From positions 7,384,258-7,448,257 of the forward strand of contig CM046307.1 in the NCBI GenBank assembly GCA_025267735.1: a DNA stretch of 64,000 nucleotides. The letters are read 5' to 3'. Below, one piece after another: positions 435 through 43,092 of the stretch (its first letter is position 1; every line of letters starts with the position of its first letter). The position numbers and the translations under genes are program-made. The notes beneath the pieces were generated by a model that was not told the origin of the DNA, did no database searches, and was given only the letters and a program-made list of their open reading frames with translations. Origin of the DNA: Mactra quadrangularis (taxonomy: Eukaryota > Mollusca > Bivalvia > Venerida > Mactridae).

Positions 435-730
435 CAAACGAGCGTTCATCCAAAACGAGGCTCAATTAATGAAAGACAGGTGCGCGACATGTTAGCTCTC
501 GACAAAATCAATATATAAACATTACAACTCTAGGTACGTGCTTACATGATTCGTGTCATTGCAAGTAAAGTTTGAAATAATCATTCTTGCTTCGTTGAAA
601 TTTGATTTATTGTATTTAAATTGGCGGTAACTATTGTGTTTAGTTGGACTTTATCCGTGAAGTAATTCCCTACTTGCCCACTGTTTTACAGGTTAATTAA
701 TCGAAGGACCCACATTTGGACGTTTTCAAA

Positions 731-17502
<16,772 letters not shown>

Positions 17503-23690: not shown

Positions 23691-23821
23691 TTAAGTTCCT
23701 TCAACAATATTTTCATGCAGAGATGTACCCTCACTAAGATGATCTGGTTCAAAGTGTCTATGTACAGAATAATGAAGTCTAGCATCATCAGCTCGTAGAT
23801 TCTGTATACTATATGTATTAC
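23691..23821 (-). CDS. CENPC: CENP-C exon 19 (end of cupin and C-terminal tail, stop)
   Basis: Acceptor ATTACAG. Encodes NTYSIQNLRADDARLHYSVH (compare human NYYNIKNLRNEESVLLFTQ, recalled), then about 20 further residues to TAA. Cupins of this family usually end soon after this strand, so the tail is extra. Confidence 0.9.
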
Positions 23822-26800
23822 CTGTAATACAATATAACAATATTATGATTATATTAGAGCTGTCTTCCATTCCAACTATATTGATTTTATAGGTCATATC
23901 ACGGGAATCAGTCAACCTTCTTGCCGTTCCTGGAAAAACTATATCTCTAGATTTAGATGTTAACCAGTTACTAGGTGCATACTCTGTCAGTGACTGACAA
24001 CAGCCCTACATGATTGAAATCAGAGGTAGGAAGGAGAATGTCCGTAGAAATTATTTCATAACCAAACTCCATGAAAGTATGCTCCACCTGGGAATCGAAC
24101 CCCTCTACCAGTAGACTTCAGTGCTACCAAATGAGCTAGCTCAGAAAGACACCCAGCTCTGCATTGGTTTGAATCTCATCAAAAACCTCTCTGCTTCCAT
24201 AAGCAATAAACGTAATCCTACTAGTTAAGTCATGAGGAATTAGGAAGTGAAAAAAATAAATGCTTAAGCTAAAATAAATTAGTATAAAGTATAACTAAAT
24301 TAGTTAAGTAAAAGTATTCATGACCCTTCTTTGTTTACAGTCATTCATATTCAACAACAAAAATAAAACATTTTACCTAAAGGCACCATAAATATATCAC
24401 CAGATTCTAACAATGTAGAAGTTTTATGAATCTTCACTAAAACTTTACCATATTCTATATTAAACAACTAAAAATAAAACAGAAATATGCATTTTTATAT
24501 ACAATTGTTTATATAAGATAATAGTCATTTTAGTATTAATTACATATATTATCATTTGATTACTAAATTTAAGTGTTAAAGTAGTTAATACAATGGATAT
24601 GTCACAAAAGTCTTAAAATATAATATACATGTATTATAACATGCAAGAAATTCTTACAAGCTACATTTGTATCAGATAAAATCTTTCATCCAAATAGTTT
24701 GAGTAATTTTACAACATCAAGAGCATTTCTGCAACTTTTCATAGGCATAATCTGAGCAAGACATGTAAATATTTAGTGCACAAACATAATCTGCATTCCA
24801 TTTTGACACATATAAAACCAAAACCTTTCAGGAGGGTGTGAGAAAACGATGGCTCACTATCAACTTTGGCATTTTTATGGTAACTATATATCAGACATGC
24901 TAAAAGTTGGAACCCTGTAAGATTTTAAAATGTTGAAAAAACTAGTGAGTCTTCAGTTAAGATCATTTGTCACCAATGGGTAATATTCTGAATGTTAATG
25001 GTAGAGGAATTATTTCTTCTTCTTCCTCTAGTAATGTACCACACACAATTTTGAGCATTGTTGCACACACACAATTTTGAGCATTGTTGCACGCAGGTTC
25101 AAGATTATAGGGAGGAGAGCACAAATTGGTGCCTGCTAGGATAGTATGGTCAGATTAAAAGTCAAAATTCAAAGCTAAACACTGTCTTAATGTAAAGTTT
25201 ATTATGTTAATTTTTACTGATCTCTCAGAGGCACTTACATTAATTACATTGACTTGAAAATTCACTACATAGCATCTGTACTCATGATTGATAAAATTAT
25301 ATTTAAATCATCAGAGTTAATGTATGCGTGACTAATGGATGAAAAAAATAGATCAACATAATATTGGAATACAACTTGCTAAGATAAGCTGTAAGACCAA
25401 CATTCCCTACTTACCACATAGTCAGCTGTAACTCTATGTTCAGGTTTAAGAGCATTAGGTTTAATACTTAGTTTACCAGCAGATATACATGGATGACTCA
25501 ATAATCTTGTTATGATATAAGGATCATCTTTCTTTGGTGTTTGATTACCTGGACCAACTGGTTGACTACTATCTTTCTTAGCAACACAATCTATAACAAG
25601 AAATGTAATGTGGAAACCACATTAAAGCTGAGTTTAAAAACTTTAATGCAAAAATTACAAAGGGAAATAATCCATAATAAACCCAGGAAGAGTTGTGATT
25701 ACATAGTTCATAACATGGTATGTTATCATTGTATGAAGTTTCATAAAGATCTGAAATAAATGGCAGAAATATACGGCAAAGAAAAACTTCACCGCAATTG
25801 TTAAGGGCACCGGACGCCCGTCCTCAAGCCCACCCGCTTGCCTGTGTTTCGCCAAACTATTGGCTGAATTTTTTTGTTGAAACATCCGGCTAAAATTACA
25901 CTATATAGGAAATTACTTGAGTAGAGGTTGTGGGTCCAACCAAAGTTCTAACATTTTTGTTAGCCCTTACTCTTAATATAACATGCATAATAGTGAATAT
26001 TTTATGGCAGAATTACAGGGCACTACATCCTGTTATATTTCTTTCCATTCTGTCCTTTTTTGCTTCTATAATTATTTTGAAACATCAACCCTTCATTTGT
26101 CTGCCTCCCTGTCCCATTTTGTGATTAAAAGTCATAAATGCACTAATTTTGTTCATTTCAACAAACTGAATGTAGTCACACACTGTAGTAGTGGGATAAA
26201 AGTTTTTCATTCATCAGATTTCAAAATTTTGCAACCAAGTGCTATGTACATTCCACATCCTCGTAATTTTTTCAAATACCAATAATCATCATTTTCAGTA
26301 ACCACAAAACATGGTGGACCAATGGACAAGTCCTGTAAAAGATAAAAGGTCCATCTAGATAAGCAGGTTTACAGGACCAACTGTCAGGCAAACAATTTGA
26401 TCTCATCCACACAGTTTTCAATTCATCAAAATATGCAAAATGCCTCAGGTCCTGTAAGACTTGGTTCGGTCCTGTAAAATTTTGACCTTCTAAGGATCTA
26501 CTGTCCAGTAATAAACTGTTAAGTGACATTTTATGTCAAGCCTTATACTACAATATAATAAATACACTATTTACCAATTTCATCTTCAATCTGAGAGAAA
26601 GGATTATAAACAATAATCTCATGTGAATCTGTTTCATCAAGTTCTACATCCTCAGGTAAATCAAAATGTATAGATAACTTCCTCTTTGATTTATCACTAT
26701 TTGATATTGCTGATGCTTTCTTTACTGAAATAAGATATATTCACAACGAATGTTACGTATGATAGTTTTGTATACAAAAGCACAATTGTTCTGGAAGCTG

Positions 26801-29800
26801 AACTTGGCTTATTCAGATTTAGTAAGATCATGTTCTTGACTTACACATGTTTATCAAGCGGGACCAAAACACTCTTCCCAGAAGAAGCTGAATGCAGATT
26901 GCTTCCCCAAACAAAACAAAACACTTTTCCCCCAGTAAGATTCTTCTAACTCCCAAATCCCATAAAATATCCCCTAACCATGCAGAACCATAATTAATAT
27001 AGAATGAGAAAAATATTCCAGATTTCTTCACGACACAGTCTATATTGTTTCTTTCACCAATAATTTACTGGATTATCTTATTGATTTTTATGTAACACTT
27101 ATAATTCAATAAATTTATTCCTTTTTTACTTGCAATAAAATTGGTTCATTTTCCCTTTAAATAAAGAAAATCGCTGATTTTTCCACAAAGAAGGCCCCTT
27201 CTCAAAAAAGGCATTTGGACCTTGTATAGTAGATCTTGAATTAGAATTAGTCAGTGATAACAAAATGGTAATACTAATAGTAACAAAACACACTTGATTT
27301 GTTAAAATAATTCCATGTAGTCAAGCATAATTTCATTTATGGTGGACACACGGGTTCTCGCACATTTAAGGACTCAATGAACCATTTCTAATTAATGCAA
27401 CAATACTTTCAGAAAAATACATTAAAAACGAACCTTTTAATCTATATTCTATTTTTTTATCATATACTTGCTGATATTTTATATTTAAAACAAATCCAAA
27501 TCCTTCCAGAAAAAACACGACCATTTTCTGAAAACTGTCATGGCGGCTAAAAATAGATGACCTAATTTCGAACTTCTACCGTATTTGGCTCTTTGTGAGG
27601 TCATAATTAGCTGCCACATGACTGTCACGTGACTTTATGAGCAAGGGCTATCTGCCATGTGCTTTTTTTATTATAACATACTTTTAAACACTATTTGATG
27701 GATTGTACTGACAGAGCGGAAAAAGGTAATAAGGATTTACTGAAAAATATTCACCATCACAAAATATTCATTCTAATTACATGTTTCTTGTGCATTATTC
27801 TCGTTTGACAGTTGTAGTTGCGTCGATTGTTTACTTAACATTAGTGCACACGAATTGATGACGTCATTAATAACTTCTTTATGAAAGGTTCGAGATCAGA
27901 TGAGGTCCGAGATCAGGCGTTTGTATGATAAGCAGACATTCCGAAAAGTGTTTTGACATTACTGGACATTTGGTCCAGTGATCTTGGAAGAATAACTGGA
28001 CCGAATCAGGTTTCACTGGACCGAAGAAATCATCAAAATAACAGATTTTTACATGTATCTTTATCAACAACAATTTTTTTATTACTAATTGGATTAATAA
28101 GGGGAAGTCAATACGTCATGACATATTACTGTTTTTTAGTCGCTACTTAGTATTAACTTTTAACTGAAGACACAAAATAGGTTCCATACTTATCAAAAAA
28201 CTTGATAAAATAGCCAATAGTTGTCCTGATTTTAATTTAAAAAAAAAATTAAACAAGTAAATCTGTGAGCTAATGCTCACTAGTGATACCCCCGCCAAAA
28301 TCTAAAAATATGCGACAAACAGGAAGTAGATGAGCGAGGAGCATGAAATCGCTTTACACCACATGGGACTATAGGATGAAGCAATATGCAAAGTTTCAGG
28401 CTGCTGCATGGTATAGTTGCTGAGAAAACTGTGACGGAAATTTTGTAACGGACGGACGGACGGACGGACGGACGGACGCACGCACACACGCACGCACGCA
28501 CGCACGGACAAGGGTAAAACAGTATACCCCCCTCTTCTTCGAAGCGGGGGTATAATGAAATTGAACTGTACATTCGGACCAGCTATGACAGACTTTTTAT
28601 TGGACCGAATGGAAATTTACCAGTCAGGTCCGTCGGAATGTCTGTTGTTAAGTCTGGATTACGGACTTACTTTGATACGATAGTTGCCTTCTCTTTCTTT
28701 TCTTCTCTTCAGCCATTTTGTATATCATCTCTTTTGATGGTTTCACTCCAATAATTGCAGGCCCTGAAGAATAAAGCGTTAATTCAGTTTTTACATGTAC
28801 ATAAAACTTTCATAACATTCTATCAAAGATTCCAAAATACCATACATTAGTGAAATCAGGGAAAATTTACACAATATTCAAAATCTACAAATTGCACTTA
28901 TTTCAGCAAATATAAAATGAAAAGAAAACAACAGGTTCAACCCAAAATTAAGGACAAACCTATTTTTCATGAACAATATATGCACAACCTTCCAATGGAA
29001 ATGTACAGTTTTTACATTTAGAAAACAAGTATGTAAATGATGGTTACCTGAAGGTTTGCTGTAATCAAATACAACTCTTTCATTTTTATACCAAGCTACA
29101 GGTCTTAATCTTGTTCTCGATGAACGTCTCAATCCTTCTACAGGTTGGGATGGCTTTACTGATAAAATAAGTAAAAATAAAGTCTGATATATAATACAAA
29201 CATTTATAAATATAACACTACCAATCATCAATTTACACATTCACAGTCATTTAATCAAGCACTTGTCTGATTTATCATGCTATATAGTAAAAGGCAAGCT
29301 AATCAACTAGCCTAACTATGTAAATTAAGTAATTATCACTGGCCCAAATCAATTTTCACTTACCCCAGGCTTTGGGCTAGTGGGTTAAGACAAAGACTGC
29401 ATGCAAGTTTGCCAAAATCTTTTCCAAACAATTATAAACATCAACTTGCATGACAAAATTTACACAAAACTATTAGATTGACTGCATCTATATCTTTTAT
29501 AATCGTCACAAATGAAGTTACCGCCTTAGTTCAGTGTGGTAAGTATGCTTGACTTCATGTCAAGCAATCTAGGTTTGAATCCTGTTCATGTTAGATTATA
29601 CACTTTCATTAAACAAGTAAATCTGTGAGCTAATGCTCACTAGTGATACCCCCGCAAAAATCTAAAAATATGCGACAAACAGGAAGTAGATGAGCAAGGA
29701 GCATGAAATCGCTTTACACCACATGGGACTATGGGATGAAGCAATATGCAAAGTATTAGGCTGCTGCATGTTATAGTTGCTGAGAAAACTGCGACGGAAA

Positions 29801-32800
29801 TTTTGTAACGGACGGACGGACGGATGGACGGACGCACGGACAAGGGTAAAACAGTATACCCCCCTCTTCTTCGAAGCGGGGGTATAAAAATTCAATAATA
29901 ATGGAATAGTAAACAGCCATAATTTCAGGACATGTCAGAGGTACTATTCTCAAAACTCAAAGTAGGATTGGACATAAATTTTTTTTCATATTTTCCTTTT
30001 ATCTTTTTATAGCAAATATTAATGCAGACACACTTGGTTTAACATTATATTGCACATTTATAATAAAAATATATATGAGAGAACATAGTTGACAGTTAAT
30101 GATAAACTGTGTATTAGTTGTACAATGACAACAAGTAAAGTTTGTATAAATATATTCCAAAACGTAAAAATTTAACAATTTGTAAAGAAACTTTTGGACC
30201 CCAGGGTACATGTTTCGCTGACTTTAATGTTTTGTACGATAACCTCTGATCATTAAAATCACCTTCAACCAGGTAATCCCTTACACTACTCATTTACATC
30301 TGGGGGGAGTGGAACAACTGTAGAAAAATTCTAGGTAAAGGAAATTAACAGTGCCACTAGTGGGATACAAACTCTGGACCTCTTGATCCCTAAGCAAGCA
30401 TTCTACCACTGGACCACTGCTCCTATGTAAGTGAATACTTACTTAGTTTATCAACAATCATTTCATCACTGACAGTACCAGGATGTGGTGTATCAGACTT
30501 AGTTATTTCATGTATATGCACAGGTGTACTACTTGGTGAAGGTAATGGACTATCACCTGTAAAATAGAAAACAAATATAGCAGGCTCTCAACCAACAAGA
30601 GCATAACTTGATATTTAAAGTCTTCCTATAGCCACTGAGGACCTATTATTGGGTTTGGGCAACTTGTTACTGCTAGGAACCATTTGGTTTGGGCATGTTA
30701 CTTATATAGCTTGTTGTCCAATAGGGCTGACTTCCTTAACAATTTATGTTGAGCCCTGAACTGGGAAAATCATAAAGGAATTTTGTTTTCAAACTATACA
30801 AACTTTAGGATAAAACCTTGTAAAAATAGCGGAACATTTAGTTAATATTAATATTCACCATTTATTACAGCAAGTAAAACATTATGCCTCATTTAAGGCA
30901 GCCAGGAGGAATAAAATGGTGACATGAGTGTGGCAACATAAAACCTGGACAATAAAATGTAAGTTATTTAGTATTTACTAAACACTCAACAGTTTTAACA
31001 TATTCTTTCATGCTTTATGGTGAAATCTGGAGTCCTTTAATGAAAACAAAATCTTATATTTTCATTTTCAAAAGTATATCATCTAAGAAAATAAATGATG
31101 TCATCATAGAGAAGAAATGAAATCATGTTATAATTAGTGTAAAATACCTTTAACAAAACACAGAACAAAGCATGAAAGAACCAGTATATTCATCAATTTT
31201 GGAATAAAGATCTTTTTTCATTTCAACTTGTTAGCTTAGAAAACAACATTTACACTTGTAAGTATGCAACTTATGAAAATCAGTTTTCTGAGCTCACTCT
31301 GTCCAATGAAAATAGATCTTACACCACAATCGACAAATATCAGCTACTTCCAAGTAGAATCAAGACAAAGCAATTATTAAGCTTACCAGGACCACCGTAA
31401 CTATGAGGAAATCTTTCAGCATTATCACTAAAAGATGTATATTTGACAAATTGATGTTCTGTATTTTCTTCAGGACACAAAGTTACTCTTCTTCCTTTCT
31501 TTTTTCTTGACGTACCAGGACGTGTAATACATGGAGTCAATGTACCAACAGCTGGTGCTGACTCTACTTCAAGTCTTTGTGTAACAGTGTCTATAAAGAT
31601 TAATGAGAGATTTGGATGAACTTTATTTAGTTACATAACTGAAAGATTTCAACAATTTCATAATATCAATTTACAATGATATTCAATATTTTTTCAGGAA
31701 ATATTGCTATAAAATAGTCTGCAAAAGTATCTACAGAGAGCTGGTTGCCCTAAATACCTAAAAAAATGTTGATTCACAATGTTAATTTACCAGCACACTT
31801 TAGATACTTTTCCAGACTATTTTTTACCAATATTTTCATAATATTCCATAAGAAGTGCACAACTTTAAAACTCCCTTTATATTGATAATCAACATTATTC
31901 ATGAAAGGGTATGATCTCTTGTTACTTGTAACTAGGAACCAAACCAGTATCATCATATTTCAATGGAAGATGAATATTTTAAAGAATTTGTTTTATCCCA
32001 GCTTAGACAAATTTGACAAATAGATCTACATTAAAGTTCCACAGCTAGGAACATCAAACCCAATGACTATAATAGGGGCCATAATAAAATAGGGACCTTA
32101 ATATCTAAAACTAAGCATTTGGGACTTAAAAAATGTCAAAAATTGCATAGCTTTGCAATTACCTAGGAGGTTTTTATAGGCTTAGCTGTTAGCTGCAATG
32201 AATAAGTAAACATTAGATTATAATGACATACCTGCATATCCAGAACTGATATCATCAACAATCTCAGATCTTCTAGATACTCTAAATGATATACCACTAC
32301 CAAAATGTCCACCAGGTACTGTAATAATAGAATCACACATGAATCATGGCTGATCTCACAATGTGTTACATTTCTTTAACAACTTGCATACCAGATAATC
32401 AAATTTCCATTAATACCAGAGATAATAAGATACATAAAATAATGACAGTCATTGCCTTAACCCACTAGCCCAAAGCCAAGGACAAGTTAAAATAGAATTG
32501 GGCTAGTGAATATTACATACCGGTATCTTATATAGTCAGGCTAGTTGATAATTTTGCCCATTTCTATACAAAATATTGGGCTTGTGCTAAAGGAAATGTA
32601 AGGTGATGACAGTAATGATGGCTAATTAGTAATATCCAATATTATAATATTTAATTGAAAATAAATAGATCTAAGGTTTACCTCTAATTATGAAAAATAT
32701 TCAAGACTGAAAAGCATTATTACTTGTTAAGTAAGTTTCAACCAAAAAATATTAGTTTAGTTGACATCAACAATTTTTCATACATATATATATAAAGTAT

Positions 32801-35800
32801 ACTATTATCAGGTCAGTAAAAGATTGAGCCAATCTTAAAATTTAGCATGCAATTCAGATTGCCCAAAGTCTCCAAATACTGAATTCTCAAACAGACAGAA
32901 AGTAAACAGCATCAACAAACCTTTTGAGTCTACAGCTGGAGTGGCTAACTTGGGATTTTTCTGTGAATGGTCTTCTTCGGATGATGATGATGATTTAGTT
33001 TTAGAATTTTTACGAAGTGATTCAAGTTTTTTGGATGGCACGGATTTTCTTGACTTTTTACTAACAGAAGGTGATGCCTCATCAGAAGATGAAGTTCTTT
33101 TTACAGTCCTTGATTTATTTGCTGATTTTGCTGATTTATCCTCATCGGAAGAAGACTTTTTCACTGTCCTTGATTTATTTGTTGATTTTGAAGATTTATC
33201 CTCATCGGAAGACGAAGCCATTTTAGCAGTCTTTGATTTATTTGTTGATTTTGAAGATTTATCCTCATCGGAAGACGAAGCCTTTTTAGCAGTCTTTGAT
33301 TTATTAATTGGTTTAGTAGATTCACTGACTTTGAAATCTTCAGCTGAACTATTTAACTCATACACTTTACCAACTGTCTCATTTTTATCACTAATTTTAT
33401 TCGATTTTTTACTTATACTTTCTTCCATTGATTTCTTCGAATTTTTTCCTAACTTTTTAATAGACACAGATTGTTTATTTTTTAAACCCCTTACACTTTT
33501 ACTGTTTCTTTCCTTAGTTCTATTACCTTTAACATTTGTCTCATTTTTAGAATTTGATTTGCCACTATTTGTATCGTCATTATTATCAACATCATTATCT
33601 TGAGGCAATTCATCATCAACAGCCAAGTCCACTTCCACTAAATGTTCATCATTTGTTTCATGCTCACTTTCATCAATATCTGATCTTTCAGCAAATTCTT
33701 CTTCAGATTTTCTCTTTTTTTCTTGTGGACTCTTTTTCTTTTCTTCACCAGTTTTCCTCTTCACAGCTTTTTTACTTTTGGAAGTACTCTCCATTTCTTT
33801 TGTACTATTTGATTTTCTATTACCCTTCTTTAAATTATCCACCAATTTTTTATCATTTGATTGAGATTTAGAAGTTTTTGATGGCTTTGTCTTTTTTGTT
33901 TCATCAATTTCATTTTCACTAGACACAGAGCTGCTTTTATCTTTATCTTTTTTACTTTTATTATTTTTTCCTTTATCATTAACAAAATATGATTTTTTGA
34001 CATCATCTACAATAGCAATATCATCATCTGATTCTGACTCTTCACTTTCATATATCTTATCATCACCATAAAGCTTGGTTGATTTTGATGTAAGACACAT
34101 AATATCAGCACCATCATCCTCATCATTGTATGAAGTTTTCATGTTCTTAGACAGATTAGAAGGTTTACTATTCTTGATTGCCTGGGAAGATTTCACTGGA
34201 TTATCTGACTTATTAATACTTTGTGATTGTGTTGAGGAAGATATATTTTCATCCTTTCTAAGTTCTTTGTTGGCTTCATCAACCCTATCAAAGGTAAAAA
34301 TATACAATAATACAGATACATTTGAATGATACTATTTGAATGTAAGATTTGCTTCTATCTATTTTGCAGACAGTCAGTATCGGAGAAATCTTCTGCATTT
34401 TAATATCCTTTAACAATACTTCTCCTTAATCTGGGTCTAAGTTAATTACTTAACTCATAATTGTATCCATCCAACTGAAAAGGAATGAAACTTGATAAAA
34501 ATCCATACTCCAAACACAGATTCTACCCACAACCTCTTGAGTTGTAAACAGATTCTCTACCATGTCCCTATTAATGATAGCTTGAAGACAAGGAAGTACA
34601 AGTCGAGGGTTGCCTGCAAGACTGTAGTAAGTGCATTGCATTAAAGAATGAGTAACTACAGTCTTGCGGGCAACCCTTGAAGTGCTGTATTAAAGTTTAT
34701 ACCTCTGGTACAATAGCAAAATATAGATTCAAACATTTTCTAGCTTTATGCACATAATGTAAAGTGGTTCTGATACCGATAGTTATCATACATGATGACT
34801 CAGTAAACAAACACAATGTTAAACAGAACCTACCTTTCCCTAGTTTTTATTATAGATTCTTCACTTTTCTCAAGAGCTGAGTAAGACAATCTGTAATGAA
34901 AACATTAATGTAGGACTTTTTAATGTACAAGTAACTATTTTAACATATTTTAAAAATGTCACAAAACCTTACCACAAATGGTAAAAAACCAAACTACTGA
35001 GTACCAACATAAATTGTTCAGGTTGTTGAACTGATCTGGGCTGTCCTGGTGACAAGCAGACAAGTAAATATTTCCATCGCACATGTTTGTGGAGAGTTTA
35101 GCTGTTACATAGAGATACTTGATAATTAGATCATAATATGTGTCTCAATGTTTATATCCTATTTAACTGTGAACTATTTCATTATAAATTATCTATTATT
35201 TCTTGTAGTATGCATTTTATATCATAGCTCTAAAAATACTTAAGCCGAGTCCATTTTGATGCCTTACAAGATGATTTTTCTATTTTACTAGTCTGGCACA
35301 CCCCTGGTTGTAAGATAAAATTAAGTCTCACCTTTTACGTGTTCTATCAAAGCTTACAACAGATGCAGGTCTTTCTAGTTTTGTTATAGAACCACTTCTA
35401 TTTCCAGCAACATCAATGTTTGAATGAATTCTAATACTATCATATTGTCCAGTGTTATCTTTACCAAATGTGTCTATCAGTTCAATATTCCCTGTATAGG
35501 ATTCACCATGTTCTTTATTGGTATTAACATTTTTAGGAGTTATTTTCATACCAGGAGTTACTTTCTTAATTACCTCTTTAACACTAGATTCAGTTTTGTT
35601 TATGGAAATATGTTCTTTCTCTCCATTTTTACTGTTTTTGTTTTGTGTCTCATTTTTACTGGTTTTGTTTTGGGTCTCATTTTTACTGTTTTTGTTCTGG
35701 GTCTCATTTTTACTGTTTTTGTTCTGGGCCTCATTTTTACTGTTTTTGTTCTGGGTGTCATTTTTACTGTTTTTGTTTGGGGCTTCATTTTTACTATAAT

Positions 35801-38800
35801 GGTCAACATTTTCAGAACATTCATCATCACTATTAACACTCTCATTCTCAGAATCTATTTTATCATTAACATTTTCTTTGTTTGGTTTAATTTCTTCATT
35901 GTCTACCTTAGATGATGACTTTCTTGAAGCAACATCTTTTGACTGTTTCTGATCATTAGTACATTTACTTGACTCATTATCAAGTTCATCATCATCAGTA
36001 GACTGATCTGAAGGTGACTTGTGTATAACTATTTGACTCTGAGTTGAATGTGTCACAGAGCTTTTGTCAGAAATCACATCATCATTATTTTCATTATCCT
36101 CTGCATCATCATCATCAACATCCTCATCAACACTTTCATCATCTGATTTCTGAGACTGTTCTATTACAGCTGTATTTGAATGTTCAGTATCAACAGTTGG
36201 GTTGTTATCATCTAAACTACTAACCTCCTCATCTACGTCATCTTCTGTTTCCTGACTGTTAACTTCATCTTCTGTGCCTGCTGTTTGACTGTCAATTTCT
36301 TCTTCAGTACCTGTTTCCTGACTGTTCATATCATCTTCTCCATCATCTTCCTGACTATCCACTTCATCTTCGGTTCCTGTTTCCTGACTGTTAGTATCAT
36401 CTTCATCAACCTCCTGGCTATCCATTTCATCTTTGGTTCCAGTTTTCTGACTGTTCACGTCATCATCTCCATCAACTTCCTGACTATCCACTTCATCTTC
36501 GGTTCCTGTTTCCTGACTGCTAACATCATCTTCATGAACCTCCTGGCTATCTACGTCATCTTCAGTGCCTGTTTCTTGACTATCAATATCTCCATCAGAG
36601 TCAGCCAATTCAGTATGTTCATTGCTGGTAGCATCTATAGATTGAAAAATAACAATGTTTTCATGCAATTTATCATTATTTCTTCAGTTATTTATAGTAA
36701 TAACTTGATCTAATCAGCTGTCTTGTTTATCAACAATGACAAATCTTTCCAAAAACAGCAGAAAACTTTTCCTCAATAAAAAAGAAACCAACACGCTTGT
36801 TGAAATTTCATAGAATGGCGTGACCTGTGGCAATCTGAAATCATTCCACAAATTTACAATTCACAATACTAACCATGGCTAAATATTTGTTAAGAACTGA
36901 AATAAGTTGTTCCTAAAATTCTCACTGTTTTCTAAGACACATCCGCAAAAAAAGAAATACAAACAAGTAAATCTGTGAGCTAATGCTCACTAGTGATACC
37001 CCCGCCAAAATCTAAAAATATGCGACAAACAGGAAGTAGATGAGCAAGGAGCATGAAATCGCTTTACACCACATGGGACTATAGGATGAAGCAATATGCA
37101 AAGTTTTAGGCTGCTGCATGTTATAGTTGCTGAGAAAACTGCGACGGAAATTTTGTAACGGACGCACGGACGGACAAGGGTAAAACAGTATACCCCCCTC
37201 TTCTTCGAAGCGGGGGTATAACTAGCAATAGTATCTAGAGCTTCAAAATATGTACTTAAATTTTCAACTAAACTTTCGAGATCTGAACAGAGCTCAACAT
37301 AAAAAGTTGTCCTATTGCCCCTGACGACCAATATTTGGGTTTTGGCAACCTGCTACTGCAATAGAAGATATGGTTCGGGCAAGTTAAAATACAGCTGGCA
37401 GTCCATTCAGGCAACCTAGTTTAAAAATTAGTGTCCAGCCTTGCCTGAAATACTGTAAATACTCGTATGTAAAAAGCTATGCTATGAATATGAGTGGGTA
37501 TGGCCAAGAGGTTAGATAAAAGAGCTAAAAGATAAAAGCGTAAGTTCAGCAAAGTGTTAGTGTTATTTCACAACTTATTTACTTATATCCAATTCATTTT
37601 TTGCCAGCAAGAAACATTATTCAAATTGCTAAAAACATTGGAAGCAGTGAACAGAGTTAAGAACTTTTGTATACAAAAGAATAAAGTATAAAGCGATAAA
37701 GTTGTGAGCAAAGTTGTTCACCTTTTGTGTTTTCTTCATTAGTCTGATGAGAGCTTGCAGCCAAACTTGATACAGTGTATTCCTAAATATAGAAAAAATG
37801 TGGATAATAAACAAATTTAGCATAAGTCTAGCTTCATATCTAAAACATTGCTTGTTCAAAGAGTTTATTTGGTTGTTCAATAGATACAATCATATGATTA
37901 TAAACATTGGTAAACTCTAGTGAAATAATGGTGATAGACAGACAGACTAGCCCTTGAATCAAGATAAAGAGAACTCATATTCAGCAGTTAATTGTTTTTG
38001 TGTAATAAATAAGGAAAATCAAAATTAAATAGATGCAAGAAAGTAATTTTGTTTTCTTAAGTAGTTGGTTCTAATCCTTTAGTATTCAAGCACATATTTA
38101 GCGTTTTCTTATCAATTGCTGGGAAGTTTAGCACAAAGAGATCAATTTGATCAACAAATTTTTATGGCCAAACTAACATACAAAACTGGGTCCATTGAAT
38201 GGAAAGCTGAGTGTTCATGTCCCATTAAGAAAATGAAGTCTCTAAGTAATATTGATAAATGGTTTCATTTATGGAGCTATTCATTTAAGGATCACTGGTA
38301 TAAAATATTGGTATTTAAAAGAAAGAAATTTTAAAACTTGTAGAACACTTACAGATTGTGAACTTCTCCTAGTATCTCTCATAGATACACTATGTCTAGA
38401 TGAAATAGATGATACATCTGAAATTATATATGTGTAAGCTAAAATAATGTAACAAATTAAACAATATGACATTCTGGAATATGCAATGCATGGACTGTTC
38501 TTTCTGAAATAGGATAGAAATATGGCTGGAAGCAAATCTGAGGTTTATAGGTAAATTCATGTCTTAACAATTGTAAGAAATTCTGCAGCTTCAAACAAAA
38601 TGTCATATAATTTCATATGACCATTAAATGGTTCAAAAGACATAACTAGATAAATTGACTTGGTTGTCAAACGCACTGGTTCACCTGGTGAAAAACATTT
38701 CAATTTGATAGGACAAAAGCTGCTGAGAGCAAACATAACAGCCACTCAAGCTAGCAGTTCATCAAAAATGTTCACATAATATGAGAAGTCTTTAATGGGC

Positions 38801-41800
38801 AATAAAAAATTCATTCTTTCAATTACATGTACTTATTATTTTCTTTCCAGTGGAATACCTGATATAAAAATTGATATTCCATTGTTTTGACACATTGAAT
38901 TTTTTATTTTATTTTCACTGTTTGGTTGCTCCGTTTGGAGGCATATCAGACTTAAACAATAAATAATGCCAGTTTAAAGCATATAATAAACAGAAAATTT
39001 GTTTATTTCAGGGTAAGATCTACTTATTTCACTTGTGAGCTAAGGATATTATATTTTCACAAGTGGCTATGCCAGTCGGGAAAATATTCCATCCTTAGTT
39101 CACTTGTGAAATAAAAATCGATCTTACACCAAAATAAACAAATATCCTTTTTAGATACTTACCAGATTCAGATAAATAGTCATCAAAATTTTCAAATCCA
39201 TCTTCATTCAAAGTTATGTGTTTATGGGATATTACATCTTTACCTGTTCTCCTAAAATTATAAAATACTTGCATATACTTATACTTGTATATTGAAAATT
39301 AACAATTATCAAAATGTAAGTAAACAACACCATGTGTCTAAATAACAGGCTCCTTTAACTTAATACACATTGAAAGGGTATTAAATATCTAAAATTGGAG
39401 TTGCCGTACAATACAAACAAAGAAATGGCCATAACACTCAAATAGTTCTTAGAGCCACCTATGTACAGTATAACATATGAAAGAATTGTATGTTATGGGC
39501 AGGAGAGTTGTTTTTTTTTCAGCCAAGTAACATAATTTTTATTTACAAGACAATAATTTGTAATTAGCTTCACTATTAATGTAAGCTAATCAGTCTGGTT
39601 GAAACTGCCATTAAAATTTCTTAAAAATCATACACATGATCCCAGACACATTATTTGAATTTAGCGATAGGACAGTGGCCATCAAAATAATTGCTGGTTT
39701 AGAATATCTGAGAATGTCTGAGACTGGACATTTCAGCAATCTTATAATAAATTTTAACAAATCACAATATCTAACCTTCCAATCTTTTTATTTAGAGGAT
39801 GAACAAACTTCCTTCCACTAAAAGATGATACCTGAAAAAAACCCAAAAAACAATTACAACAAAACAACAATTGGATTCTATTACTAAATGCTGCATTCAT
39901 AGTCATCTTCATAGCAAAGTAATCATATTGAGTCTAAGATATATTTAAACCTAAAAAAAACAGCATTTAATAACTAGTTTTGATTTTTCTCTTCTATATT
40001 TTAAAATAGATCATACATTGGTGTACTCAATCTTATCATAAATGTCTTATGAATACATTGATTATATTGGGTAACTGTTATGAATAAAATACCAAGACTT
40101 CAAATTAATAATGAACTTAAGTTTTGTAAAGACTAAAGTTAAAGTATTATGTTCATATTGCTTAAATTGTCAAACTGGAATTTTGAAACTTGGAAGTTTA
40201 AAAATCTAGTCCATTTTTACTCTTGTTAAATAATTTTCTATTTCTTTTTTTTTGTAAAATGGTCATATGTTTTTCACAATTCATTGTCTATATAAATAAA
40301 ATTGCAAACTTAACTGCATTTTACCAAAGGTAAAATTCTACTTGCTAGTGATCATAGTAAAACTCAACTAATATTAGCAACCTGATTAAAGAGGATGCTG
40401 GAAGGCAAACAAGAAAAAATTGCTGTCTAACCTCAACGTGTTGTCAAAATATTCAGCATACAAGAGTTAAAGTCACAAAGTAAGATTAATGACAACCCAA
40501 GTAATTTGTAGGATATTAAGAAAACAAAAATGAGAAAATATGATTCGAGAATCAACATAACTTACATTCTTTAATTGTGAAGCTGTATCATTGTGTATCA
40601 AGCTAGGTACACTCTGTGACATAGAATTATGATTATTGCTCTCAGGTATACTTGATGTACTTCCTAGTCTACTAGTAACATTATTAGACAATGAGGATTG
40701 ATTTTCTTTACTATCTTGTGAATAGTTAATGTTACTTTCTTCACTGATTCCATCTAGTCTAAACTTTTCTCTTGTGATATCCATATCTATAATAATAGAA
40801 ATAAGTTTTATTAATTAAAATAAATCTAGATTGTCTCACTAAATGAGGTTGCACATCTACTAAGTTTTAAAAGATAAATGAACACAATAATTATATTTGA
40901 TTTCACCAGTTATTCTTCCCCTTTTCAGCTCATAGAGCTGTTTCATTTAACATAGCCGAATGCCATAATCATAGCAGTATGCTTTATATTTACACAGAGT
41001 GAATACATAAAACATATCTTAGGCCACAAGTGCATTCAATTTATTTCTCATGGGCATCAATTCTGAAAATAACTATAATACTTTAGGGGTTTAATAGAGT
41101 TTTGAAAGTCACTAACAAAGTGAACATCACACTTTTGAATTGTGTGAGCATTCTAGCATTTCAACTGATTCTGCTACATTATTGCCTATGATATCATTTA
41201 GTTATTTAACCCAGATTGGTAGTGCAGTTGGTAGCGTGTCTAGATTTTGAATCTAGTGTTTAAAGGGGGTACAGGGTTTTGAATTCCATCCAAGGAGGTT
41301 ATACCATTCCATGAAAATTTGACAATAATGTCAATTTTCCTCCTTTAATAAGGTATATGGAGTAGTTTCCGGTCTTGTGAAAGAGTAGGTTAGTACCGGT
41401 TATAGACAAGTGTCCAGGAAAGCAATGTTAGGTTCATTCTATAAATAGAAGGTGAAGATATCACCTCTATACTAAGACGCACAACGCTCCCAAAATTTGG
41501 CATTTGGTACGCAATAGAATATAGTGCAGCGCATGAAGACAAATTCGTTGGATCTTTTCGTTTTTTGACAAAATCATTGTTAAAATGTAAAATAAATTAT
41601 CACTCATAGCTACAGGAATATAAATCCATAGATACACAGTACTTTTAAACCTCTATAGGTATATAGGTGCATAGTTAAACCGTGTAACCTAGTTTCGATT
41701 TCAAACGTCTGTGTAAAAAATGACAGATGTAAACACGTTATGATGAAGGTTTAACTACCAGTTAAAAAGTTTAATTTAATGAGGACAGTTGGTTGGATAG

Positions 41801-43092
41801 TTAAATTTTATTGAGTAGACACAAAATACATACTCTATTTGTTCAGTATACTTGAAGAGGGAAGTTATTAGAATGTAAACATTGCCACGTGTTTTCAGGT
41901 AAATAAACAGTTTTACCCATGATGCACGACATCTCCGTACAAACAAAGGTCAGTCAGACTGTTTGTGTACAGAAATGAATAATGTTAGGTTTCCTGGACG
42001 CCGTAAAATAATCTAAAAAATTGTGTTGACACGGCATTTAACCCAGAATAGAAATAAACATACAGTCGTTTACCAATGGGAACCCTGAAAATCAAAGGTT
42101 TGACACAAATAAACAGGCTAACTACATTTATTAATCAAAATTGCATAAATGGAAGCTAAACATTTTCAAAATCCTGAAATTCATAATTTCAGCTGTTTTT
42201 ACCTTTCCCAGGTCTCAATATTCCTGAACCTTATCACCAGTTATATGAAAAGGAGAATATAACAACAAATTGTACAGAGAAACATAGTAAATGAACAGCA
42301 ATTGATACTTACCAGAATCTGAGAAATAATCATCAAAATTTTCCATACCATCATCTGTACGACGTACATTTTTACCTGCTAAAACTGCTTTACCTGTACG
42401 TCTGTAATAAAATCAAAATTACATCATAGACAGAGTTCAAATCAGTGACTGACATAAGCCTAATCTTACAATTACTTGAGCTAGATACAGTCAGGGAGGA
42501 GAATTACATTCACTGAAAAATACTGAAAACCCTACACCCCTTGAAAAAACACCAGATTTGAAAACTTCAGACTTAGTCTGCAACATTTTATAAACTCAAA
42601 TATTGCAAAAAATCTAAAATCAGCTGAACAGCTGAAAATTCTCATCCCTGAACAGTCCTCTGGAAACTTGTCATTCATGCAGTCTTGGTCAGTAAAAACA
42701 CAATACAATATTTTGAATTTATTTTCTGAGGTTGAATCCCATGTCCTACATTTGTCTAGCATAGTACAACTGGACCATCAAAGTCCTATATACTTGTCAT
42801 GGGTCTGCCTACTCTGTTTTCTATGGAATTCTATTCAACAGGATGTTCAACTACAATGCCATTTAACCTGGAAAAATCAACATGCAAACATAAACTCACA
42901 TCAATTATCATCCATGGTACTTTTAACATTCTAAATTGATTTCTAAAAGACTAAAATGCCTTAAAAATGACCTCTCAGGGATCATCAATGAGTCACGAAC
43001 AAATAAAAAAATTTAAAGTTATCATTAATATCTCACCTCCCAATTTTCTTGTTTAGAGGATGGACAAACCTCCTTTGGCTAAGGGAGGACAT
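23691..43092 (-). CDS. CENPC: Centromere protein C (CENP-C / Mif2 family)
   Basis: CENP-C is the inner-kinetochore scaffold: it binds CENP-A nucleosomes through the CENP-C motif, dimerises through a C-terminal cupin, and recruits Mis12 through its N-terminus. Nineteen exons with GT-AG introns and matching phases give 4518 nt, 1505 residues if the ATG at 43092 is used (human about 943). Order: two N-terminal FVHPLNKKIGR/RTGK/ENFDDY modules (about 1-49 and 122-171), an acidic repeat-rich exon (about 213-646), a Lys/Ser-rich exon (about 666-1120), the CENP-C motif RRSSRTRLRPVAWYKNER (about 1266-1283), and a cupin (about 1390-1480) with GKLSIKP, IEYGKVLVKIHKT, LESGDIFMVPLGN and YSIQNLR. Exon 1 directly follows a CAG acceptor, so an upstream exon, at least 5'UTR, probably exists. 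Odd features: module duplication, W-Y order in the motif and a C-terminal tail after the cupin. Confidence 0.92.
24050..24160 (-). repeat. tRNA-derived SINE remnant, family 2
   Basis: On the minus strand TAGCTCATTTGGTAGCA (A-box) and GGGTTCGATTCCC (B-box) are well preserved, but the acceptor stem is absent. It lies in the last CENP-C intron. Confidence 0.6.
24377..24467 (-). CDS. CENPC: CENP-C exon 18 (cupin core)
   Basis: Acceptor ATTTTTAG, donor TTAG|GTAAAA. Encodes LFNIEYGKVLVKIHKTSTLL followed by ESGDIFMVPL, matching the cupin strands of CENP-C (human VNFGDLLCTLHET and STGDSFYVPSGN, recalled). Confidence 0.93.
25415..25590 (-). CDS. CENPC: CENP-C exon 17 (start of cupin)
   Basis: Acceptor TTATAG, donor GTG|GTAAGT. 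Encodes a Lys/Pro-rich stretch, then SHPCISAGKLSIKP and HRVTADYV, corresponding to the first cupin strands (human FFSTGKLILGP). Confidence 0.92.
26575..26724 (-). CDS. CENPC: CENP-C exon 16
   Basis: Encodes KKASAISNSDKSKRKLSIHF followed by an acidic segment with EIIVYNPFSQ. Basic then acidic linker between motif and cupin. Phases match both neighbours. Confidence 0.85.
26725..28670 (-). other. CENP-C intron 15
   Basis: About 1.9 kb. Apart from the CTTCGAAG element at 28252-28552 no feature was recognised; small reading frames here lack coding character. Confidence 0.7.
28252..28552 (-). mobile_element. CTTCGAAG short repeat element, copy 3
   Basis: At 301 bp this is the longest copy, because its CCGT/CGTG tract is expanded. 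Minus-strand orientation, sense to CENP-C. Confidence 0.9.
28671..28763 (-). CDS. CENPC: CENP-C exon 15
   Basis: Encodes PAIIGVKPSKEMIYKMAEEK followed by KRKRRQLSYQ, a basic stretch just after the CENP-C motif. Donor CAAA|GTAAGT. Confidence 0.87.
29048..29158 (-). CDS. CENPC: CENP-C exon 14 (CENP-C motif)
   Basis: Carries the nucleosome-binding CENP-C motif RRSSRTRLRPVAWYKNER. The double Arg contacts the H2A/H2B acidic patch in known structures and the aromatic pair contacts the CENP-A C-terminus. Fungal, plant and vertebrate motifs read Tyr-Trp at the aromatic pair; this one reads Trp-Tyr. Confidence 0.94.
29337..29392 (+). repeat. Dispersed GGGCTTTGGGCTAGTGGGTTA repeat, copy 2
   Basis: Matches 22120-22172, including the flanking TCAATTTTCACTTACCC-like sequence. 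Confidence 0.7.
29512..29595 (+). repeat. tRNA-like SINE remnant
   Basis: TTAGTTCAGTGTGGTAAGTATG resembles an A-box and GGTTTGAATCC a B-box. A five-pair anticodon-like stem (CTTGA/TCAAG) is present, but the acceptor arms do not pair, so a functional tRNA is excluded. Confidence 0.5.
29612..29884 (-). mobile_element. CTTCGAAG short repeat element, copy 4
   Basis: A 273-bp copy in CENP-C intron 13, sense to CENP-C, directly beside a tRNA-like remnant. Confidence 0.9.
29970..30208. mobile_element. Partial copy of the ACCCTGGGGTCCAAAAG MITE
   Basis: The right edge reads GAAACTTTTGGACCCCAGGGT, the inverted terminus seen at 19506-19750, and the interior is similar. The left edge is missing or diverged. 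Confidence 0.6.
30290..30425 (-). repeat. tRNA-derived SINE remnant, family 1 copy 2
   Basis: Minus strand GGTCCAGTGGTAGAATGCTT (A-box-like) and GAGGTCCAGAGTTTGTATCC (degenerate B-box). Colinear with 21010-21190. Confidence 0.6.
30443..30556 (-). CDS. CENPC: CENP-C exon 13
   Basis: Encodes DSPLPSPSSTPVHIHEITKS followed by DTPHPGTVSDEMIVDKL. Ser/Pro-rich linker; phases agree with exons 12 and 14. Confidence 0.84.
31387..31590 (-). CDS. CENPC: CENP-C exon 12
   Basis: Encodes about 68 residues including PCITRPGTSRKKKGRRVTLC and HQFVKYTSFSDNAERFPHSY. Unlike the flanking exons it is not low-complexity. Function unknown. Confidence 0.85.
32232..32318 (-). CDS. CENPC: CENP-C exon 11
   Basis: Encodes PGGHFGSGISFRVSRRSEIV and DDISSGYA. 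Acceptor ATTACAG, donor GCAG|GTATG. Confidence 0.84.
32456..32515 (-). repeat. Dispersed GGGCTTTGGGCTAGTGGGTTA repeat, copy 3 (inverted)
   Basis: Reads TTAACCCACTAGCCCAAAGCC on the + strand, the reverse complement of the cores at 22.1 and 29.3 kb. Confidence 0.68.
32921..34284 (-). CDS. CENPC: CENP-C exon 10 (giant Lys/Ser-rich exon)
   Basis: Single 1364-bp exon encoding about 455 residues rich in Lys, Ser, Asp and Glu, predicted disordered. Near its 3' end about four units of roughly 19-20 residues (SSSDEDKSSKSTNKSKTAK and variants) form a coding minisatellite at about 33085-33310. Many basic clusters (KKK, RKR) suggest nuclear localisation or DNA contacts; Ser-rich DED contexts suit acidophilic kinases. 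The opposite strand also has an open frame, a shadow of this composition. Confidence 0.9.
34834..34890 (-). CDS. CENPC: CENP-C exon 9
   Basis: A small exon encoding LSYSALEKSEESIIKTRE between the two giant exons. Acceptor CATTACAG, donor AAAG|GTAGG. Confidence 0.83.
35332..36634 (-). CDS. CENPC: CENP-C exon 8 (giant acidic repeat exon)
   Basis: 1303-bp exon encoding about 434 residues. Its first third is an imperfect repeat around DSQETGTEDEVDSQEV (about seven units, 36240-36600), strongly acidic. Its last third has a 9-residue repeat, NKNSKNETQ, about six times, encoded by a 27-bp minisatellite (about 35625-35800). Predicted disordered. It contrasts in charge with exon 10. Confidence 0.9.
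36962..37218 (-). mobile_element. CTTCGAAG short repeat element, copy 5
   Basis: The shortest copy at 257 bp, in CENP-C intron 7 about 330 bp upstream of exon 8 in transcript order; sense to CENP-C. Confidence 0.9.
37722..37782 (-). CDS. CENPC: CENP-C exon 7
   Basis: Encodes EYTVSSLAASSHQTNEENTK. Acceptor TATTTAG, donor AAAAG|GTGAAC; phases fit exons 6 and 8. Confidence 0.8.
38353..38417 (-). CDS. CENPC: CENP-C exon 6
   Basis: Encodes DVSSISSRHSVSMRDTRRSS, Ser/Arg-rich with possible Aurora-type RRSS sites. Acceptor AATTTCAG, donor TCT|GTAAGTG. Confidence 0.82.
38997..39143. mobile_element. 147-bp MITE in CENP-C intron 5
   Basis: Ends TTTGTTTATTTCAGGGTAAG and GATCTTACACCAAAATAAAC are imperfect inverted repeats, and the interior also pairs (TTTCACTTGTGA, CTAAGGAT). 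It ends about 20 bp from the donor of exon 5. Confidence 0.72.
39163..39251 (-). CDS. CENPC: CENP-C exon 5 (second module, part 2)
   Basis: 89 bp encoding RTGKDVISHKHI, then EDGFENFDDYLSES. Same length and phase as exon 2, with the same RTGK and ENFDDY landmarks. Confidence 0.9.
39776..39831 (-). CDS. CENPC: CENP-C exon 4 (second module, part 1)
   Basis: 56 bp encoding VSSFSGRKFVHPLNKKIGR. Same length and phase as exon 1; FVHPLNKKIGR is identical to exon 1 despite silent codon differences. Confidence 0.9.
40566..40786 (-). CDS. CENPC: CENP-C exon 3 (spacer between modules)
   Basis: 221 bp encoding about 74 residues, starting MDITREKFRLDGI, rich in Ser and Asn. Acceptor TTATAG, donor AAT|GTAAG. 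It joins the two repeated modules. Confidence 0.85.
41211..41450 (+). repeat. tRNA-derived SINE, family 3 copy 1
   Basis: Head GTAGTGCAGTTGGTAGCG (A-box) with a degenerate B-box, then a body (GGAGGTTATACCATTCCATG) shared in reverse with 44440-44740. In CENP-C intron 2. Confidence 0.75.
42313..42401 (-). CDS. CENPC: CENP-C exon 2 (first module, part 2)
   Basis: 89 bp encoding RTGKAVLAGKNVRRTDDG then MENFDDYFSDS. The RTGK...MENFDDYF pattern recalls the yeast Mif2 N-terminus (RKTG...MENIDDFF, from memory). Confidence 0.92.
43037..43092 (-). CDS. CENPC: CENP-C exon 1 (first module, part 1; putative start)
   Basis: 56 bp, beginning with ATG immediately after a CAG acceptor (TATTTCAG). Encodes MSSLSQRRFVHPLNKKIGR. 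The same position in exon 4 is Val, so this Met could be internal; an in-frame upstream exon cannot be excluded. Confidence 0.85.

What the first reader, a model, noticed from the sequence alone, without database searches (positions are those of the whole stretch)
39163..43092. Tandem duplication of a Mif2-like, putatively Mis12-binding module at the CENP-C N-terminus
Exons 1+2 (56 + 89 bp) and exons 4+5 (56 + 89 bp) have the same lengths and phases and encode the same about 49-residue module at 32 of 49 identical residues (FVHPLNKKIGR, RTGK, ENFDDY, S-S-D). FVHPLNKKIG is identical in protein yet five of its codons differ silently, so both copies appear to be under constraint. From memory, yeast Mif2 begins with a similar RKTG...MENIDDFF segment (Pfam Mif2_N), which binds the MIND/Mis12 complex. 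If both copies work, one CENP-C could recruit two Mis12 complexes, a change in kinetochore stoichiometry. The functional part is inference.
Basis: partly seen in the sequence, partly recalled or inferred. Interest (0 to 1): 0.9.

Follow-up and report, generated by a model that had tools for sequence, protein, structure and literature searches.

The report
Doubled Mis12-docking segment in clam CENP-C
A clam centromere protein carries two copies of the short segment that, in yeast and humans, hooks the chromosome to the microtubule-binding machinery; many other molluscs have two copies as well, so one such protein may hold two hooks where the well-studied animals have one.

Summary
Confirmed. 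The minus strand holds a complete 19-exon CENP-C gene (1505 aa, 43092-23691). Exons 1+2 and 4+5 (56+89 bp each) encode one module twice: 32 of 49 residues identical, 14 of those 32 codons differing silently. CENP-C motif and cupin are present.

Mis12 relation: the window stays below Pfam's Mif2_N cut-off (18.8 vs 23.5 bits). Profiles of module 1 and of module 2 each rank K. lactis Mif2, crystallised on the Mis12 complex, first of 177,635 PDB sequences, at E = 0.051 and 0.025; a broader profile reaches 0.0021.

The duplication is old. Of 27 proteins selected by C-terminus (a capped list), 16 of 21 mollusc CENP-Cs have two modules, one has one, three show none (models probably truncated), one chiton is degenerate; 3 of 3 deuterostomes have one. 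Second modules of scallop, oyster, hard clam and freshwater mussels group together. Spiders probably duplicated separately. In mactrids exon 4 was apparently overwritten by exon 1.

Binding of two Mis12 complexes remains inference. Nine paper searches listed no report of it; known CENP-C exon duplications (grasses) lie elsewhere in the protein.

The parts
43037..43092 (-). CENP-C coding exon 1 (56 bp): module 1, N-half, starts at ATG (MSSLSQRRFVHPLNKKIG-R); vertebrate-like RRF..P segment
   Evidence: Mactra, Mercenaria and Dreissena proteins start at about the same place
42313..42401 (-). CENP-C exon 2 (89 bp): module 1, C-half (R-RTGK...GMENFDDYFSDS), Mif2-like
40566..40786 (-). CENP-C exon 3 (221 bp, phase 1-0): linker of about 74 residues between the modules
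   Evidence: 56 of 74 residues identical in Mactra
39776..39831 (-). CENP-C exon 4 (56 bp): module 2, N-half (VSSFSGRKFVHPLNKKIG-R); apparently an overwrite by exon 1 in the mactrid stem
39163..39251 (-). CENP-C exon 5 (89 bp): module 2, C-half (R-RTGK...GFENFDDYLSES), Mif2-like
38353..38417 (-). CENP-C exon 6 (phase 1-0, same phases as exon 3)
37722..37782 (-). CENP-C exon 7
35332..36634 (-). CENP-C exon 8: long acidic, internally repetitive, poorly conserved middle region
34834..34890 (-). CENP-C exon 9
32921..34284 (-). CENP-C exon 10: long low-complexity region, poorly conserved
32232..32318 (-). CENP-C exon 11
31387..31590 (-). CENP-C exon 12
30443..30556 (-). CENP-C exon 13
29048..29158 (-). 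CENP-C exon 14 (111 bp): CENP-C motif RRSSRTRLRPVAWYKNERVVFDYSKPSG
28671..28763 (-). CENP-C exon 15
26575..26724 (-). CENP-C exon 16
25415..25590 (-). CENP-C exon 17: cupin, first part
24377..24467 (-). CENP-C exon 18: cupin, middle
23691..23821 (-). CENP-C exon 19: cupin end and stop codon

Best explanation
This is the CENP-C gene of a clam close to Mactra, and its N-terminal Mis12-docking region exists twice. Each module has two parts: a basic F-x-x-P stretch (exon 1/4, like human CENP-C RRRFCRP, residues 14-20) and a GRRTGK...ENFDDY stretch (exon 2/5, like yeast Mif2 RKTG...MENIDDFF and the human helix 32-44). The copies arose by tandem duplication of the first exons before the main bivalve lineages split, perhaps in an early mollusc, and both were kept in most bivalves and gastropods seen. 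In the mactrid lineage exon 4 was later replaced by a copy of exon 1, so that both modules are again complete. I infer that each module can bind the Head-1 face of a Mis12 complex, and that the roughly 74-residue linker lets one CENP-C chain hold up to two Mis12 complexes, where human CENP-C recruits one. Shown here by sequence: two modules, gene structure, family identity, age in bivalves. Likely: exon-4 replacement. Inferred: binding of Mis12, double occupancy, effect on stoichiometry.
For: Gene model and phases; cupin PF11699 E = 3.8e-15, and PDB CENP-C hits down to 4.5e-18 that include the CENP-C motif. Profiles of ten module-1 and of ten module-2 sequences each put K. lactis Mif2 (5T59) first of 177,635 PDB sequences (E = 0.051 and 0.025), the module-2 profile with S. 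cerevisiae Mif2 second; a 16-row broader profile gives E = 0.0021. One relative with the same module (P0027) passes Pfam Mif2_N at 30.5 vs 23.5 bits. Arg15, Arg16 and Phe17 of human CENP-C, named as contacts in PMC5101189 (passages), align with R7, R8/K8 and F9 of the modules, and Glu36, Asp40 and Phe42 of the human helix with E39, D43 and F/L45. Two or more modules in 11 of 13 bivalve proteins (Pinctada one, Mizuhopecten none) and 10 of 12 gastropod proteins (Babylonia and Nucella none), starts 83-129 residues apart (the profile was built from 12 of these modules, so six of the proteins match by construction). Group of second modules 98/83. Copy-to-copy dN 0.25, dS 1.18 by NG86 on 49 codons.
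Against: No binding, structural or RNA evidence for this gene. The window is below the Mif2_N cut-off, and module 2 alone finds no Mif2 by single-sequence search. Only one of 12 relatives scanned passes Mif2_N; the very similar Limulus protein gives no Mif2_N hit. The PDB E-values of the module-1 and module-2 profiles are weak, and no profile found human CENP-C. Human Lys10 and Tyr13, needed for tight binding, have no match in either module, and human Ile37 aligns with Asn. In 8 of 11 two-module bivalves module 2 lacks the F-x-x-P half, so it may bind more weakly or something else. Module 2 differs from Mactra more than module 1 does (40 of 48 vs 45 of 48 residues identical), hardly less than the linker (56 of 74). 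Human CENP-C recruits one MIS12:NDC80 complex (PMC5241120) and a fly CENP-C fragment binds 1:1 (PMC4772808); I know of one docking site in each (recalled).
Confidence: 0.5

Rival explanations
1. Both modules are Mis12-type sites but only one is occupied at a time: they compete for, or jointly wrap, one Mis12 complex (avidity or a spare site), so stoichiometry stays 1:1.
For: Second modules of 8 of 11 two-module bivalves lack the F-x-x-P half and could use only the Mif2-like half of the surface; in human Mis12C the two halves of CENP-C lie on different parts of Head-1 (PMC11189301, passages).
Against: In the window and Mactra both modules are complete, so they would compete for the same face; the linker of about 74 residues is long enough for two separate sites (inference).
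Confidence: 0.25
2. The copies have divided the work: module 1 docks the usual Mis12 complex, module 2 a variant complex or another partner, or acts in another cell type or under other kinase control.
For: Module 2 has its own sequence in several bivalves (W-L-R-N-K-N-I-G-R-R-T-G-K in Mercenaria and both Saccostrea, similar in others). Flies have two Mis12 complex variants (PMC4772808).
Against: Both copies keep the Mif2-like core, and the module-2 profile alone still ranks Mif2 first; in mactrids, Magallana and unionids the copies are more alike again, which argues for the same task.
Confidence: 0.15
3. The modules are used by alternative splicing or starts: exons 3-4-5 form an in-frame cassette (phase 1 to 1) and exon 3 opens with an in-frame ATG, so single-module isoforms may dominate.
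For: Phases; the Met near the start of exon 3 (MDITREKF) is also present in Mactra.
Against: Predicted proteins of 20 other molluscs join two or more modules, though these are gene models; exon 4 has no ATG in the window.
Confidence: 0.07
4. The second module is a decaying leftover or a gene-model artefact without function.
For: A degenerate second copy exists in Aplysia and two degenerate copies in the chiton Liolophura; Pinctada's model has one module.
Against: Two or more kept in 21 of 25 bivalve and gastropod proteins; ten second modules share 12 invariant positions; open, in-phase exons.
Confidence: 0.03

Closest known systems
N-terminal Mis12-binding segment of vertebrate CENP-C (Petrovic et al. 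2016, PMC5101189, passages read)
   Same: Extreme N-terminus; basic RRF-x-x-P stretch followed by a short acidic/aromatic segment that is a helix in human; same protein with CENP-C motif and cupin.
   Different: Human CENP-C recruits one MIS12 complex (PMC5241120); the clam has two modules, with a GRRTGK element between the halves and without Lys10/Tyr13 equivalents.
Mif2 N-terminus of budding yeasts (Pfam PF15624; 5T59, K. lactis Mif2 with the MIND complex)
   Same: RKTG...MENIDDFF matches RRTGK...MENFDDYF; first-ranked PDB match of every module profile.
   Different: One copy in the yeast chains matched; lacks the F-x-x-P half; the window scores below the Pfam cut-off.
Exon duplications in grass CENP-C (Talbert et al. 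2004, PMC549713, passages read)
   Same: Tandem duplication of a pair of exons inside a CENP-C gene, recurrent, with later divergence.
   Different: There the duplicated exons 9-12 lie in the poorly conserved middle region, suggested to bind DNA; here it is the Mis12-docking N-terminus in animals.
CENP-T with several outer-kinetochore docking sites (PMC5241120, abstract and passages read)
   Same: One inner-kinetochore protein carrying several short docking motifs, raising copy number of the outer kinetochore.
   Different: CENP-T binds one MIS12 and two NDC80 complexes through three phosphorylated sites; here the same motif is repeated in CENP-C.

Membership tests
CENP-C / Mif2 family | CENP-C motif (RR...TR..P..W...ER) | tested here: met
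   Exon 14; PDB matches 7by0 and 7xhn align over it
CENP-C / Mif2 family | C-terminal cupin (PF11699) above the curated cut-off | tested here: met
   56.4 bits vs 29, E = 3.8e-15
CENP-C / Mif2 family | Localises to centromeres, binds CENP-A nucleosome and Mis12 complex | not testable with these tools
   Needs experiments
Pfam Mif2_N (PF15624) | Score at or above the gathering cut-off of 23.5 bits | tested here: not met
   Window: 18.8 bits (E = 0.0028) for exons 1-5 joined, 14.6 for module 1, none for module 2; a 238-aa N-terminal piece and module 2 with its downstream part gave no hit, and module 1 joined to exon 6 onward 14.3. Of 12 relatives scanned one, P0027, meets it at 30.5 bits
Mis12-docking module | Basic residues and Phe of the first half (human Arg15, Arg16, Phe17, with Pro20) | tested here: met
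   RRF..P in module 1, RKF..P in module 2 (contacts named in PMC5101189 and PMC11189301). Arg14 aligns with Gln and Gly
Mis12-docking module | Human Lys10 and Tyr13, required for tight binding | tested here: not met
   Ser at both places in both modules, counted back from Phe17 (requirement read in PMC5101189)
Mis12-docking module | Short amphipathic helix on Head-1 (human 32-44) | tested here: inconclusive
   x-E-N-F-D-D-Y-F/L aligns with Mif2 MENIDDFF and human LEILQDCF (human row partly from memory); no structure or complex model made
Mis12-docking module | Binds Mis12 complex | not testable with these tools
   Needs a binding assay or complex prediction

The most novel reading that the evidence does not exclude
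Molluscs run a two-hook CENP-C: one chain docks two Mis12 complexes, and in most bivalves seen the two hooks differ. Module 1 has the F-x-x-P half that in humans is blocked by the Dsn1 auto-inhibitory segment until Aurora B acts; module 2 has only the Mif2-like half, whose human counterpart stays accessible. So one site would be Aurora-gated and the other constitutive, and mactrids have since turned the second into a gated one by copying exon 1 over exon 4. Spiders and one sea slug (three copies) would have arrived at multivalent CENP-C in their own ways.
Probability: 0.2. Interest if true: 0.9.

Novelty: new variant of a known kind. Interest (0 to 1): 0.7.

Why it matters
How many outer-kinetochore complexes one centromeric unit can hold has been explained in humans by one Mis12 complex on CENP-C plus those on CENP-T (PMC5241120). 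A natural, long-kept doubling of the CENP-C docking site in a large animal phylum would make the question testable by comparing one-module animals (starfish, sea urchin) with two-module molluscs. The mollusc module also joins a vertebrate-like half to a yeast-like half; [quoted passage not shown]

Tried and rejected
Chance similarity: rejected (next best match in the window E = 0.47). Modules elsewhere in CENP-C: in the 52 proteins every profile match at i-Evalue under 0.5 ended by residue 254. Recent duplication: disfavoured by dS 1.18 between copies and by the group of second modules from several bivalve lineages. Residual intron similarity as trace of the event: the exon 1/4 match runs about 31 bases into the intron, 76 % identity over 93 bases, too weak to use. 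Human CENP-C as PDB hit: no profile found it. Single-module isoforms: not testable, no RNA. CENP-T and Mis12 genes in the same genome: the genome search did not complete. Structure prediction was not run: the module is a short, probably disordered peptide, and a complex with Mis12 could not be modelled.

Against my reading, and rows dropped: the module query favours two-module proteins; therefore I ran a C-terminus query, but its five cores came from the window and four proteins found by the first searches, only the 7998 candidates sharing most words were scored, only lengths of about 605-1925 aa qualify, and E was capped at 1e-8. The counting profile was built from 12 modules of six of the proteins counted. 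For the tree I used 46 of 58 module rows; the 12 dropped were degenerate or weak copies (Ornithodoros 1, Octopus, Elysia 3, Aplysia 2, Plakobranchus 2, Physella 2), close relatives of kept rows (Haliotis asinina 1 and 2, Saccostrea cucullata 1 and 2) and two unnamed single modules; the 58 came from 34 of the 52 proteins held. The tree has only 49 columns, its root is for drawing only, and 17 of 43 forks are under 80; the group of mactrid with Dreissena and Mya second modules has 87/90, below the star. It does not resolve whether bivalve, gastropod and Capitella duplications are one event. The C-half of window module 2 scores best against Mercenaria module 1 (130) and only then Dreissena module 1 (128) and Mercenaria module 2 (127); only the means over six species lean to module 2 (111.5 vs 107.3).

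Full report
What is there. The minus strand carries one complete CENP-C gene. From an ATG at 43092 to a stop at 23691 I could join 19 coding exons with GT-AG borders and consistent phases into an open frame of 1505 residues. The last part holds the CENP-C motif (exon 14) and a cupin: Pfam CENP-C_C 56.4 bits against a cut-off of 29, and PDB matches to CENP-C at 4.5e-18 and 3e-17. The closest protein found is that of Mactra antiquata, 79 % identical over residues 1-212, so the window probably comes from a mactrid clam (inference).

The duplication. Exons 1+2 and 4+5 have the same lengths (56+89), the same phases (0-2, 2-1) and code for the same module at 32 of 49 residues; 18 of the 32 shared codons are the same and 14 differ silently; five of those lie in FVHPLNKKIG. 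NG86 gives dN 0.25 and dS 1.18 on 49 codons, a rough figure near saturation. In a six-frame search of the 64 kb the modules find each other at E = 1.3e-6 to 9.5e-10 and nothing else below 0.47. Exons 3-4-5 together are an in-frame (1 to 1) cassette.

What the module is. In the PDB the best match to module 1 alone is Mif2 of K. lactis (5T59; its structure with the yeast Mis12 complex is described in PMC5101189), E = 0.26; module 2 alone finds only unrelated chains. Profiles do better: the 12-row profile has K. lactis and S. cerevisiae Mif2 as first and second of 177,635 sequences (0.064, 0.53); ten module-2 rows the same (0.025, 0.25); ten module-1 rows K. lactis Mif2 first (0.051); a 16-row profile of mainly single or first modules of many animals reaches 0.0021. 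Pfam Mif2_N scores 18.8 bits on exons 1-5 of the window, below its cut-off of 23.5, and nothing on a longer piece. Of 12 relatives scanned, one (P0027, an unnamed protein much like that of Limulus) passes with 30.5; Limulus itself gives no such hit. By Pfam's rule the window is not a member; by descent it very likely is (inference).

Two halves. The structure papers (passages read) describe human CENP-C bound by two parts: an extended basic stretch, residues 6-22, with Arg14-16 and Phe17 in contact, and a helix, residues 32-44. Exons 1 and 4 code for a RRF-x-x-P / RKF-x-x-P stretch like the first; exons 2 and 5 for RRTGK...ENFDDY like yeast Mif2 and, less clearly, the human helix. Lys10 and Tyr13, which the human protein needs, have no equivalent here, and Ile37 aligns with Asn.

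How widespread and how old. I held 51 relatives from three searches plus the window and counted modules with a profile at i-Evalue under 0.5. Bivalves: two in 11 of 13 including the window, one in Pinctada, none in Mizuhopecten. Gastropods: two or more in 10 of 12 (Elysia three; Aplysia's second degenerate), none in Babylonia and Nucella. The three models without any module probably lack the N-terminus (by eye). The chiton Liolophura has none by the profile and two degraded GRRT segments by eye. Octopus: one, without GRRTG (nine entries, one species). Annelids: Capitella two, Lamellibrachia one; one in the unnamed, Lamellibrachia-like P0023. Arthropods: Oedothorax and Araneus two, Ornithodoros two with a weak first (0.12), Argiope, two Centruroides and Limulus one; unnamed: P0021 one and a weak stretch (0.034), P0027 and P0040 one. 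Deuterostomes (three echinoderms, one acorn worm whose model starts inside the module): one in 4 of 4. Because the module query favours two-module proteins, selected by the C-terminus: of its 27 proteins, 21 are molluscs (16 with two modules, one with one, three with none, one chiton), three annelid or annelid-like (2, 1, 1) and three deuterostomes (1, 1, 1).

History. In a tree of 46 module rows and 49 columns, second modules of Argopecten, Mercenaria and Saccostrea and both modules of the two unionids group together (98/83), so the duplication most likely precedes these bivalves' split. The two Oedothorax modules pair with each other (96/89), as do the two of Magallana (98/84): probably a separate duplication in spiders, and a later levelling of the copies in Magallana. 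The tree does not say whether gastropod and bivalve duplications are one event. In Mercenaria, Dreissena, Mya, Argopecten, two Saccostrea and two unionids the second module begins with a W/Y-L/M...N stretch instead of F-x-x-P. In the window and Mactra it begins with FVHPLNKK; this half of the window's module 2 scores 36.5 on average against first modules of six other bivalves and 20.8 against their second ones, and in Mactra it even starts with Met, as exon 1 does. The simplest reading is that exon 4 was overwritten by exon 1 in the mactrid stem. The rest of module 2 leans to second modules only slightly (111.5 vs 107.3), with 87/90 in the tree.

Constraint. Against Mactra, exons 1 and 2 keep 45 of 48 residues, exons 4 and 5 40 of 48, the linker 56 of 74, and the long exons 8 and 10 only 53 and 61 % of aligned residues. 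Module 2 is thus less fixed than module 1, and its excess over the linker is small on these numbers; the stronger argument is its retention through bivalves and gastropods, with 12 invariant columns in ten second modules.

How it most likely works. Human CENP-C recruits a single MIS12:NDC80 complex (PMC5241120, abstract) and a fly fragment binds 1:1 (PMC4772808). With two complete modules 74 residues apart, a clam CENP-C could hold two. That step is inference; so is the idea that the halves matter for regulation, which rests on the report that Dsn1 auto-inhibition blocks human residues 6-22 but not 28-48 (PMC11189301, passages).

Known or not. Exon-pair duplications in CENP-C are known from grasses, in the middle region (Talbert et al. 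2004, PMC549713, passages). A 2025 preprint names an N-terminal Mis12-binding motif in Drosophila (PMC12724597, passages). Nine searches of the paper library (lists capped at 20) showed no title or abstract start on a doubled Mis12-docking region in CENP-C. Of eight papers I saw passages (PMC11189301, PMC5241120, PMC5101189, PMC9252888, PMC12724597, PMC549713, PMC4772808, PMC7333888), of the rest only listings; most subscription papers are not held.

Noticed in passing
window 36245-36590, 35624-35795, 33077-33305: Exons 8 and 10 of the gene contain tandem repeats (units of 63-66 bp, 27 bp and 63 bp; acidic SQETGTEDEV-like, NKNSKNET-like and SSSDEDKS-like). The window protein has 1505 aa, Mactra 1371.
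   Followed up: partly
window 13475, 17763, 54318 (+); 28527, 29859, 37193 (-): An interspersed repeat with the exact 24-mer CCCCCGCTTCGAAGAAGAGGGGGG occurs six times, three copies lying in introns of the CENP-C gene; it looks like a short mobile element (type not searched).
   Followed up: partly
window 43504-43905 (+): Open frame upstream of exon 1 that resembles the end of a non-LTR retrotransposon reverse transcriptase protein (recalled, not searched).
   Followed up: no
window about 700-5000 (+): Possible exons of an EF-hand protein, calcyphosin-like by recall ([20 protein letters not shown]...).
   Followed up: no
window 43092: The start ATG follows a 3' splice-site-like TTTCAG directly, so a non-coding first exon may lie upstream; Mactra's exon 4 homologue keeps a Met there.
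   Followed up: partly
P0018 (Elysia marginata) residues 6-47, 109-151, 210-254: Three modules in one predicted N-terminus; the protein is named after a jockey-like element and has no precomputed CENP-C cupin, so the model needs checking.
   Followed up: partly
P0048 (Magallana gigas) residues 6-54 and 128-176: The two modules are nearly identical although those of Saccostrea differ, which suggests recent levelling by gene conversion or a model artefact.
   Followed up: partly
window 3785-4165 and 49351-49709: Tandem arrays of 43 bp (8.8 copies) and 118 bp (3 copies).
   Followed up: no
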